A stretch of DNA of 64,000 bases from Strongyloides papillosus (Eukaryota > Nematoda > Chromadorea > Rhabditida > Strongyloididae): contig SRSI01000079.1 of assembly GCA_005656395.1 (NCBI GenBank), forward strand, positions 2,418,001 to 2,482,000, written 5' to 3'. The notes beneath the pieces are model-generated. The model was not told where the DNA came from. It searched no databases and saw only the letters and a list, made by a program, of their open reading frames with translations. Of the stretch, positions 47,218 through 51,724 are shown in pieces (position 1 is the stretch's first letter; each line of letters starts with the position of its first letter). The position numbers were made by a program, and so were the translations under genes.

Positions 47218-48237
47218 TTAATTCTTAAAAATATTCTTTGAAATACCTTCTTTGGCAACTTTAAACTTTCCCAAAGGTTTCAATACCTCTAATAAACGAA
47301 CTGTAATTGGTGTCGTTCCTTTAGCTATTTGATCTACCACTTTACTAAATTCATTCGTCTTTGAAGTTATATGTTCAAATGTAAACTTATTGTCACTCTC
47401 TTTATCTAATATAACTTTTATTTTTGACCATAACTTATTCTGTGGTTGATAATAATCTTTAGCAAATTTATTCAGTTGTTCTTTATCAATACATGCTTCT
47501 AGTACATAAGTATTATCACCCAAAATTAATACCTTCTCCATATTACAACTTTCTTCTAACGCAGCAAGCATAGCAGCAACTTCTACTCTAGCTGAAGTCA
47601 CTCTTCCAACTAAAAATCCATGAAGTCCTTTCATCATAATACTTTTGAATGACTTATTTATAATTACTACTCCAATACCATGATTTGAAGCGTCTGCTTT
47701 CTTACTATTATCAGCACTACCGTCAATAATCATTATTGTATCTCCTTCAAACTTTCTTATACATTCAATAATTTCCTCATCACAGACCAATGATTCAAGT
47801 TTATTCTCAACTTTCCAATTTTCAATATAACTATCTTCATAGTTGTGATCAAGTATTGTTGACTTGTTTTCTTTTCCTAAATTATCGTCAGTTACAGAAT
47901 CATCTACGTTTTGTTTTCCATCTATTTCATTCTCTATTATTGACTCACTATAATTTTCTTTTTCATCATTACCTAACTTTTCATTCATTCTTTCCACCTC
48001 ATTGATTTCATCAATCTCCGGGGCCGGAATCACATTTACGGTTTGTTCATTGAACAAATTAGAATCCTCTAATGATACTTCTTCAATATCATACAAATGT
48101 GGTGGTACCAATCCATTATGAACATAATCTTTTGAAATAAAATGACCCACATTATTGTCGTCAACAATATGAAGTGTTCTATTTCCCAAATGTCCAATAA
48201 CTGTACCAATTTCAAATTTGTGTTGATAATTTACCAC
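47218..48237 (-). CDS. ORF2: integrase C-terminal module, acidic linker and extra RNase H
   Basis: About 339 codons, open from 48263. It overlaps the end of the main polyprotein in the +1 frame. Residues 5-40 (KFEIGTVIGHLGNRTLHIV) look like the GPY/F-type end of a gypsy integrase. Residues 45-165 are acidic and low in complexity. Residues 166-310 form an RNase H1-like domain: MIIDGSADNS (D172), ARVEVAAMLAALEE (E219), ILGDNTYVLEACI (D241) and HITSKTNEFSKVVDQIAKG (D302), so the four catalytic acids are present. There is no ATG at the frame start (GTG), so expression needs +1 frameshifting or splicing. A TTATTTTAG acceptor-like site directly precedes the open region. A single-base mutation is also possible. 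Confidence 0.85.
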   Translation of the reverse strand: MVNYQHKFEIGTVIGHLGNRTLHIVDDNNVGHFISKDYVHNGLVPPHLYDIEEVSLEDSNLFNEQTVNVIPAPEIDEINEVERMNEKLGNDEKENYSESIIENEIDGKQNVDDSVTDDNLGKENKSTILDHNYEDSYIENWKVENKLESLVCDEEIIECIRKFEGDTIMIIDGSADNSKKADASNHGIGVVIINKSFKSIMMKGLHGFLVGRVTSARVEVAAMLAALEESCNMEKVLILGDNTYVLEACIDKEQLNKFAKDYYQPQNKLWSKIKVILDKESDNKFTFEHITSKTNEFSKVVDQIAKGTTPITVRLLEVLKPLGKFKVAKEGISKNIFKN

Positions 48238-51200: not shown

Positions 51201-51724
51201 TTGAAATTCTTTTCATTAGATTTTCCATTTAGTATCTTTCTCATACCCATTAATCTAAGAAATTCATCCCATTCATGCATTACAAACTTTAACGATAAAT
51301 TATCATCCTTAAGCTTTGCTTTTACCTCTATAGGTACCTCGCCAATAATTTTGAACAATAACAAATCATCAGTTCCATTAAAATATTTTAACATACGCTT
51401 TAAACGCATCACATAACTTGATGCGGTCTCATCAAATTTCCGTCTTACATCACTAAAGTTTAACAATTCCTTAGTTTTTTCATCAATACATTTCACCTGA
51501 TACTTTTCACAGAACGCTTGAATATGGTCTTCACCAATATCATTAATAGAAACATCTTTGTCCAATGAATCGAAGAATTCCATAGCAATATCCTCTGGTT
51601 GCGCTCTAGCAAAGTATATCCCTAATGAAGAATTATCACCTGATAATAACTTTACACGTTGAATGTATTCAATGTAATCATATTTACCACAATATGATAT
51701 AATAGAATCTGGTTGAGCCCCCAT
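48212..51724 (-). CDS. ORF1: Gag-Pol polyprotein of the Ty3/gypsy-type element
   Basis: About 1170 aa from the ATG at 51724. Gag is followed by the CCHC knuckle CFNCGGNHYASKC (about 249-261) and protease NIDTGSQVNLL (DTG about 299). RT carries FSKADLKWAF and the catalytic YIDD (about 593). The region at 734-847 aligns with Ty3 RNase H but reads LYVEAIMDD where LxTDAS is expected, keeps the glutamate in SAEVELVSI, has VVSNNYVAKLL instead of TDHxxL and lacks the terminal AD-LSR aspartate. The integrase has an H-H-C-C finger (about 931-970) and D999, D1051, E1092 (HCDIAYY, VSDNEP, GLVERAI). It has no internal stop. The ATG uses the last base of the LTR and the first two of the primer site. Confidence 0.93.
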   Translation of the reverse strand: MGAQPDSIISYCGKYDYIEYIQRVKLLSGDNSSLGIYFARAQPEDIAMEFFDSLDKDVSINDIGEDHIQAFCEKYQVKCIDEKTKELLNFSDVRRKFDETASSYVMRLKRMLKYFNGTDDLLLFKIIGEVPIEVKAKLKDDNLSLKFVMHEWDEFLRLMGMRKILNGKSNEKNFNNEKKGDKNQRVFDNDFTRKVEIKDEVKKLNSDIRHNGNVKGEIDIEEKIKSNTNIMTDNGREKMKMKVPPQVLCFNCGGNHYASKCELRGVQMGALQMPESFKVAPMLMEAVSIAGIVGPVNIDTGSQVNLLPLGLSKQFSSRFDMKRINVMGKAIDGKNVELELKAELPILALRTNKRYWTAEFYFAKGVSPTISYHTARELDISVDELADEVIKNRESIMNKLNEVHYHSELLANEFVKNEKIFNDILLHPISYVDIPVVEEVQSKICKPYKLKDEADSVLRKQLADEIVNERLVQVFNPRVTSPVRIVLEPKPRMCMDARRINKYLAEVEIELPNLVEIQQKLSQNECFSKADLKWAFKNLGISDGSQEYSTIVTAYGTFQSNRLQFGYKSSSSIFHKWFESCLKEFGVEKYILYIDDLCLLGSKQDQIIEWIKVINCCAYYNIKLNFAKCSFFCNDMEFLGHKFSVGCVSVLDARLNEVKNLQYPSTKDEWLAVLGKLNYMSKFIPNYGKLAKKLYPKKSGIINDSEGKIVWKELMNEIHNVRNFYLPLPNEKLYVEAIMDDNVISAEIYVQRDSKKLISIVERKKIDAENRYTSAEVELVSINNALNKLKIDSTRVVLVVSNNYVAKLLKQTDDVLNEASNRLQSLIIPLQLREYDVIVKSKPIHVKAMVIVPNEPIELSLADKILDWQKSDNMCQMIKEYIKTLNKDVYKKLPKMLVDKMNLIDIDLDGMLFVDRKPIISIELGKELALHDHMKNHNGQKALYEALATKFFCFGLSNVCIEIVRKCHVCNVTRPLQPSKAKVNVWPKCTYARERMHCDIAYYESLPIFVITDAFSSYTYACVLRSKKSSEILEVLKKIYSEHPVKMLVSDNEPALNSREIMEFINNQSTTTWITKKSNSIAYHSQSNGLVERAIRSLKAKLDKFRFENKDMSLEKLLVLALTATNNCGNKHTKFYCGIDYQDNVFNDKYVQVKEYLIYFRKCGKLSTQI
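51708..51723 (-). other. Primer-binding site (TGGGGGCTCAACCAGA)
   Basis: Minus strand, directly after the 5' LTR terminus ...TCTAACA. TGG is the expected complement of a tRNA CCA end. I could not match the tRNA to one in this window. Confidence 0.7.

What the first reader, a model, noticed from the sequence alone, without database searches (positions are those of the whole stretch)
47218..51724. LTR retrotransposon with a dying native RNase H and a second, complete RNase H after integrase
In the polyprotein the RNase H slot between RT and integrase has lost at least two and probably three of four catalytic acids (VVSNNYV for TDHxxL, no final AD, LYVEAIMDD for TDAS). Downstream of integrase a separate +1 frame encodes an RNase H1-like domain with D172, E219, D241 and D302. 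In plant Tat elements and vertebrate retroviruses a gained RNase H is associated with decay of the old one into a connection domain. Here the same logic appears in a nematode-type genome, with the new domain placed beyond integrase and in another frame. The element has matching 123-bp LTRs, so this is not simple decay of an old copy.
Basis: partly seen in the sequence, partly recalled or inferred. Interest (0 to 1): 0.93.

Follow-up and report, generated by a model that had tools for sequence, protein, structure and literature searches.

The report
Nematode retrotransposons with swapped RNase H
A group of jumping genes in a parasitic roundworm has let its original RNA-cutting enzyme decay into what looks like a structural part and carries a replacement at the far end of the protein, a swap known from retroviruses and some plant elements but combined differently here.

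The parts
51724..51846 (-). 5' LTR (123 nt)
   Evidence: identical to 47077-47199; TG...CA ends
47077..47199 (-). 3' LTR (123 nt)
51847..51851 (-). target site duplication ACAGC, upstream copy
47072..47076 (-). target site duplication ACAGC, downstream copy
51711..51723 (-). presumed primer binding site TGGGGGCTCAACC directly after the LTR; the ATG straddles the LTR/PBS junction. Same 13 nt in L015, L018, L023
   Evidence: matching tRNA not identified
48212..51733 (-). ORF1: Gag - protease - RT - converted RNase H - integrase (first ATG at 51724)
50942..50980 (-). CCHC zinc knuckle CFNCGGNHYASKC (motif recalled, no Pfam match)
49841..50257 (-). RT core region up to the thumb, with YIDD at 49948
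   Evidence: RVT_1 E 1.7e-18
49193..49534 (-). native RNase H slot, converted to a connection-like domain; first D, third acid and last D lost, E kept
48440..48937 (-). integrase: HHCC zinc binding and D,D,E core
   Evidence: rve E 1.4e-6, Integrase_H2C2 E 1.5e-5, both below Pfam cut-off; invariant columns
47218..48237 (-). ORF2 of this copy (integrase tail, linker, second RNase H); continuous with ORF1 in four other copies
48103..48219 (-). conserved integrase C-terminal block resembling GPY/F (label recalled, no profile match)
   Evidence: alignment
47308..47742 (-). second RNase H, RNase HI type, D172/E219/D241/D302
47200..47210 (-). C-rich tract TCCTCCCCCAG directly before the 3' LTR, where a polypurine tract would be expected

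Best explanation
The element belongs to a group of Ty3/gypsy-type LTR retrotransposons of Strongyloides that my searches did not find described. An ancestor gained an RNase HI domain at the C-terminus of the Gag-Pol polyprotein, after integrase. The native RNase H between RT and integrase lost its active site and was kept as a connection domain that helps to hold the primer-template, as in retroviruses. RNA removal and primer processing during reverse transcription are done by the C-terminal RNase H, either while RT, integrase and RNase H are still one protein or as integrase-RNase H or free RNase H within the particle. Shown: layout, copies, loss and gain of catalytic residues, mutual exclusion among scored hits, one RT group in the sample, few nonsynonymous changes, predicted folds. 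Inferred: activity of the new domain, inactivity of the old one, order of gain and loss, and how the new domain reaches the hybrid. The window copy has a broken frame and looks like a recent insertion (identical LTRs), probably not autonomous.
Confidence: 0.87

Rival explanations
1. As first read: a single odd element with a decaying native RNase H and a second ORF in another frame.
For: True of the window copy taken alone.
Against: Four near-identical copies have a single frame; 19 sampled lineages share broken slot and second domain; the slot shows few nonsynonymous changes.
Confidence: 0.04
2. The RNase H was captured or replaced several times within the group, each time after integrase, instead of once.
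For: Second-domain tree unresolved; L071 joins the host RNase H1 exon at 81/65; for Tat at least three gains are proposed (PMC6317226, passages).
Against: One RT group; PF00075 lies 1.76-2.17 kb after the slot in 23 of the 28 slots that I picked as likely members from the 62 rows; the other five have a second domain by other evidence (L069 truncated).
Confidence: 0.25
3. The C-terminal RNase H serves another purpose (for example at the integration site or in counter-defence) and reverse transcription relies on host RNase H or residual slot activity.
For: It lies after integrase; three rows keep one native D.
Against: Exclusion between scored native and second RNase H hits points to replacement of the same function; LTR elements are held to need their own RNase H in the cytoplasm (PMC5348765 section 3).
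Confidence: 0.08
4. The layout is an artefact: a cellular RNase H1 inserted next to a dead element.
For: A host RNase H1-like exon exists in the genome (C22).
Against: In-frame in polyproteins of 1029-1642 aa in 13 of 16 further loci, between integrase and 3' LTR, few nonsynonymous changes, second species.
Confidence: 0.01

Closest known systems
Plant Tat elements, especially gymnosperm TatIII (aRH after INT)
   Same: Extra RNase H after integrase, degenerate native RNase H (PMC6317226, passages).
   Different: Plant; extra domain of archaeal type, R in the active site (PMC5348765 section 5). Here RNase HI-type, H in 8 of 13 domains and neither in 5, animal host. RT relation to Tat not tested.
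Retroviruses and lokiretroviruses (dual RNase H with tether/connection)
   Same: Native RNase H turned into a connection domain; gained RNase H with H in the active site in 8 of 13 domains; models align to both parts.
   Different: The new RNase H lies after integrase, not between tether and integrase; no room for env in the window copy.
Odin retrotransposons of sea anemones
   Same: Animal LTR retrotransposons with tether plus new RNase H and no env (PMC9040795, abstract and passages).
   Different: Order tether-RNase H-integrase there (inferred from the passages); here after integrase. RT relation not tested.
Archon and Chronos of oomycetes
   Same: Dual RNase H with loss of native catalytic residues (PMC5348765 sections 5, 6, 9).
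   Different: aRNH next to the native one for Archon, dual RNH before the INT-chromodomain for Chronos; archaeal type; oomycete hosts.

Membership tests
Ty3/gypsy LTR retrotransposon | LTRs with short target duplication | tested here: met
   ACAGC in the window; exact 5-bp duplications, read by eye, also in L015, L018, L023, L026, L028, L064, L070; L071 4 of 5
Ty3/gypsy LTR retrotransposon | order PR-RT-RNase H-integrase, RT/RNase H closest to Ty3 among solved structures by sequence | tested here: met
   (4ol8 best)
Dual RNase H element (tether plus new RNase H) | native RNase H keeps fold, loses catalytic acids | tested here: met
   (fold by prediction)
Dual RNase H element (tether plus new RNase H) | second RNase H with D-E-D-D | tested here: met
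Retrovirus / lokiretrovirus / Odin | new RNase H between tether and integrase | tested here: not met
   it follows integrase in the window and in the nine relatives in which I read the stretch between: L009, L015, L017, L018, L022, L026, L028, L064, L071
Retrovirus | env gene | tested here: not met
   window copy only: 18 nt between stop and 3' LTR; no further long ORF on the element's strand
Plant Tat / TatIII | extra RNase H after integrase | tested here: met
Plant Tat / TatIII | extra RNase H of archaeal type (R at the fifth position) | tested here: not met
   H in 8 of 13, other residues in 5 of 13; PF00075 in 6 of 6 relatives given
Plant Tat / TatIII | RT in the Tat/Athila clade | not tested
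   no plant RT was put in the tree
Archon / Chronos | aRNH directly after the native RNase H | tested here: not met
RNase HI (PF00075) | Pfam profile match over cut-off | tested here: inconclusive

The most novel reading that the evidence does not exclude
After the RNase H swap, the inner clade also gave up the polypurine tract: in six of six inner elements with defined ends (window, L015, L018, L023, L026, L028; 11 rows in the clade) the 14 nt before the 3' LTR have purine runs of only 1-4 and are mostly C- or T-rich, while the outer dual and conventional elements looked at keep runs of 8 or more. These elements would start plus-strand DNA from a primer that is not a polypurine tract, chosen by an RNase H that no longer follows the polymerase on the chain. 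That would uncouple a step thought to need both active centres of one RT on the same hybrid.
Probability: 0.35. Interest if true: 0.86.

Novelty: new variant of a known kind. Interest (0 to 1): 0.74.

Why it matters
It adds an animal lineage to the few known cases in which an LTR retrotransposon replaced its RNase H, and it combines the retroviral kind of replacement (RNase HI type, connection-like tether) with the TatIII position (after integrase). So the repeated outcome is replacement of the function, not one fixed layout, and an RNase H need not follow the RT directly. The group is diverse inside one genome, with conventional elements beside it (one in the same window), and its inner and outer branches differ in the purine tract, so the order of events (swap, conversion, primer change) can be tested by comparison.

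Tried and rejected
Pfam on the window's ORF2 gave nothing; the single-sequence PDB search neither (best E 0.012, not an RNase H). Protein database: the RT-slot region of L071 and of L035 found, apart from the S. papillosus fragment P0021, hits of 20-28% identity with native RNase H Pfam domains, i.e. conventional-looking; the profile of C-terminal halves found one clear further relative, P0044 of S. venezuelensis. Of the 56 proteins, the second-domain profile hits P0044 and, weakly, carrot P0048, where the match lies at residues 558-642 of 1130. Candidates are limited by length and shared words, so absence elsewhere is weak evidence.

Origin of the second RNase H: tree unresolved. tRNA-primed plus strand: CCCCCA before the 3' LTR equals the presumed tRNA end in the window and L018 families but not in L015 and L023 with the same PBS, nor in L026 and L028, so I dropped it. 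The 16-nt complement of the PBS matched only the five copies; the seven typed tRNAs of the window do not fit. L017: no LTR pair in the fetched pieces; by eye a C-rich tract follows its stop. L065-L068: 3' LTR start not defined, left out of the purine-tract count. L072's LTR pair was cut by the fetched piece, left out. LTR starts of L003, L102, L103 were read by eye from one end; L101 unclear. Ty3's own structure is not among the 50 rows shown.

Tree rows: 51 sequences were long enough; 34 were used. Dropped: 12 near-copies, and L004, L052, L059, L062 and the second frame of L073.

Literature: searches listed no paper that I recognised as describing an RNase H after integrase in an animal element or dual RNase H in Strongyloides; in PMC9203780 (S. 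ratti transposons) 'RNase H' does not occur, and passages of PMC10676810 do not treat it. Most subscription papers are not in that library; the 2015 Tat paper is known to me only through the papers read and recall.

An earlier count said 22 of 28; the output gives 23 of 28. Foldseek against 'pdb' and 'viral' did not run, so the folds rest on 'pdb_via' alone.

Full report
What is there. The window lies in an unnamed 58.2-Mb, 79-contig genome. On the minus strand lies an LTR retrotransposon of 4,770 bp: LTRs of 123 nt, 100% identical, TG...CA, flanked by ACAGC on both sides. The presumed primer binding site follows the LTR without spacing, so the first ATG straddles the junction. ORF1 encodes zinc knuckle, DTG protease, RT (RVT_1, E 1.7e-18), RNase H slot (RT_RNaseH_2, E 2.8e-5, below cut-off) and integrase (rve E 1.4e-6 and Integrase_H2C2 E 1.5e-5, below cut-off). 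ORF2 carries an integrase tail, a linker and an RNase H-like domain with D172, E219, D241, D302.

The split frame is private. A genome search with ORF2 found four copies (C25, C10, C5, C27), 99-100% identical, in one open frame of 1495-1508 aa. A fifth copy (C30; 87-89% over ORF2, 73% over the slot) is broken. Intact copies therefore exist and the family's layout is a single Gag-Pol frame; the window copy is a recent insertion (identical LTRs) with a broken frame.

Mutual exclusion. PF00075 gave 55 hits in the genome (one, C22, looks like host RNase H1); PF17917 (native RNase H) gave 150 scored of 420 candidates. None of the 55 has a scored PF17917 hit up to 4.5 kb upstream on its strand, and none of the 150 has PF00075 downstream; 10 of the 55 have a scored integrase hit (150 of 401 candidates) 0.9-1.7 kb upstream. 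Of 28 slots that I picked from the 62 rows as likely members, 23 have PF00075 1.76-2.17 kb downstream, and 0 of 28 overlap a scored PF17917 hit; the other five have the second domain by other evidence (L015, L018, L019 by the family profile; L067 by Pfam; L069 as a truncated domain read by eye). A conventional element stands in the same window at 54547-58752: SDAS, HKEA, TDH and AD are intact and neither second-domain profile hits it.

One group. An RT-only tree of 34 rows splits 19 dual from 15 conventional by one branch (97/98; 97% of 200 bootstrap trees; midpoint root). I chose the rows: dual, conventional. Four conventional elements (L003, L070, L072, L073) were read to the end of the frame; for the other 11 the absence of a second domain rests on the coordinates. 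Strong profile hits favour intact native sites. The second-domain tree cannot tell one capture from several. A protein of S. venezuelensis, 81% identical to the C13 element (L030), has the broken slot, integrase and the first three acids of the second RNase H before it ends.

Changes in the second domain: window against C10 9 synonymous and 1 nonsynonymous, C3 against C28 15 and 6, C28 against C59 7 and 5. Other pairs have too few changes to tell (C9-C32 2:5, C15-C50 1:2, window-C25 0:1, C36-C14 0:1).

How it most likely works. Shown: layout, residues, exclusion among scored hits, few nonsynonymous changes, predicted folds. Inferred: the C-terminal RNase HI does the RNA degradation of reverse transcription, the slot acts as a connection domain, and the RNase H reaches the hybrid as part of a longer protein or as a cleaved product within the particle. 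In retroviruses and LTR retrotransposons the PPT end has to be accommodated by RNase H and polymerase centres at either end of one RT (PMC3185511, start of abstract, passages); here integrase and a linker lie between them on the chain.

An unexpected second change. In six dual elements of the inner RT clade (100/99, 11 rows) whose 3' LTR start is fixed by an LTR pair and an exact target duplication, the 14 nt before the 3' LTR hold purine runs of only 1-4: window TATTCCTCCCCCAG, L018 GCCTTCTCCCCCAG, L028 GTGTCCCCCCGGAG, L026 TGCCAGCCCCGGAG, L015 GTGCTTCCACCCTA, L023 TTTTGTGTTGTGCA. Outer dual elements keep a purine run: L064 AAGGGAGG and L071 AAGAGAGGA (LTR pairs), and by eye L102 AGAAGGGGA and L103 AGGGGGGA. 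So do conventional L070 (LTR pair), L003 (by eye) and the window neighbour AGAAGGAGGGAA. If the reading is right, the swap came first and the purine tract was lost later. How plus-strand synthesis starts without it is open.

Known relatives. Dual RNase H with decay of the native one is reported for retroviruses, lokiretroviruses and Odin (PMC9040795, abstract and passages), Tat, Archon and Chronos (PMC5348765, abstract and sections 3, 5, 6, 9), and TatIII of gymnosperms has the extra domain after INT (PMC6317226, passages). The present group differs by host, by the type of the extra domain (RNase HI, not archaeal), and, against retroviruses and Odin, by position. I therefore call it a new variant of a known kind. 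That it is not in print rests on searches of an incomplete library.

Noticed in passing
47200-47210 and 3' ends of L015, L018, L023, L026, L028: No polypurine tract before the 3' LTR in the inner-clade dual elements with defined ends; C-rich or T-rich sequence instead.
   Followed up: partly
54454-58889: Conventional Ty3/gypsy element, single 1401-aa frame, intact native RNase H, PPT AGAAGGAGGGAA before the 3' LTR, 5' LTR apparently truncated at its outer end.
   Followed up: partly
51722-51724; also 54547-54549: Start codon formed by the last A of the LTR and the TG of the primer binding site, so the PBS is translated.
   Followed up: no
46100-46230 and 54375-54437: GC-rich palindromic repeats around CGGCGCCGAC in an AT-rich genome, near both LTR elements; five cores in the window.
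   Followed up: no
32422-42788: Cluster of seven typed tRNA genes plus one untyped.
   Followed up: no
26155-28822: Endonuclease-like ORF (below Pfam cut-off) followed by an RT ORF, probably a non-LTR retrotransposon.
   Followed up: no
13544-15649: Gag-like ORF with weak zinc knuckle and aspartyl protease matches, both below cut-off.
   Followed up: no
10013-12100: Class C GPCR-like gene (ANF_receptor and 7tm_3).
   Followed up: no
L069 (C24:288500-292700): Deep-branching dual element with the first native D kept and a second RNase H-like stretch cut short by a broken frame.
   Followed up: no
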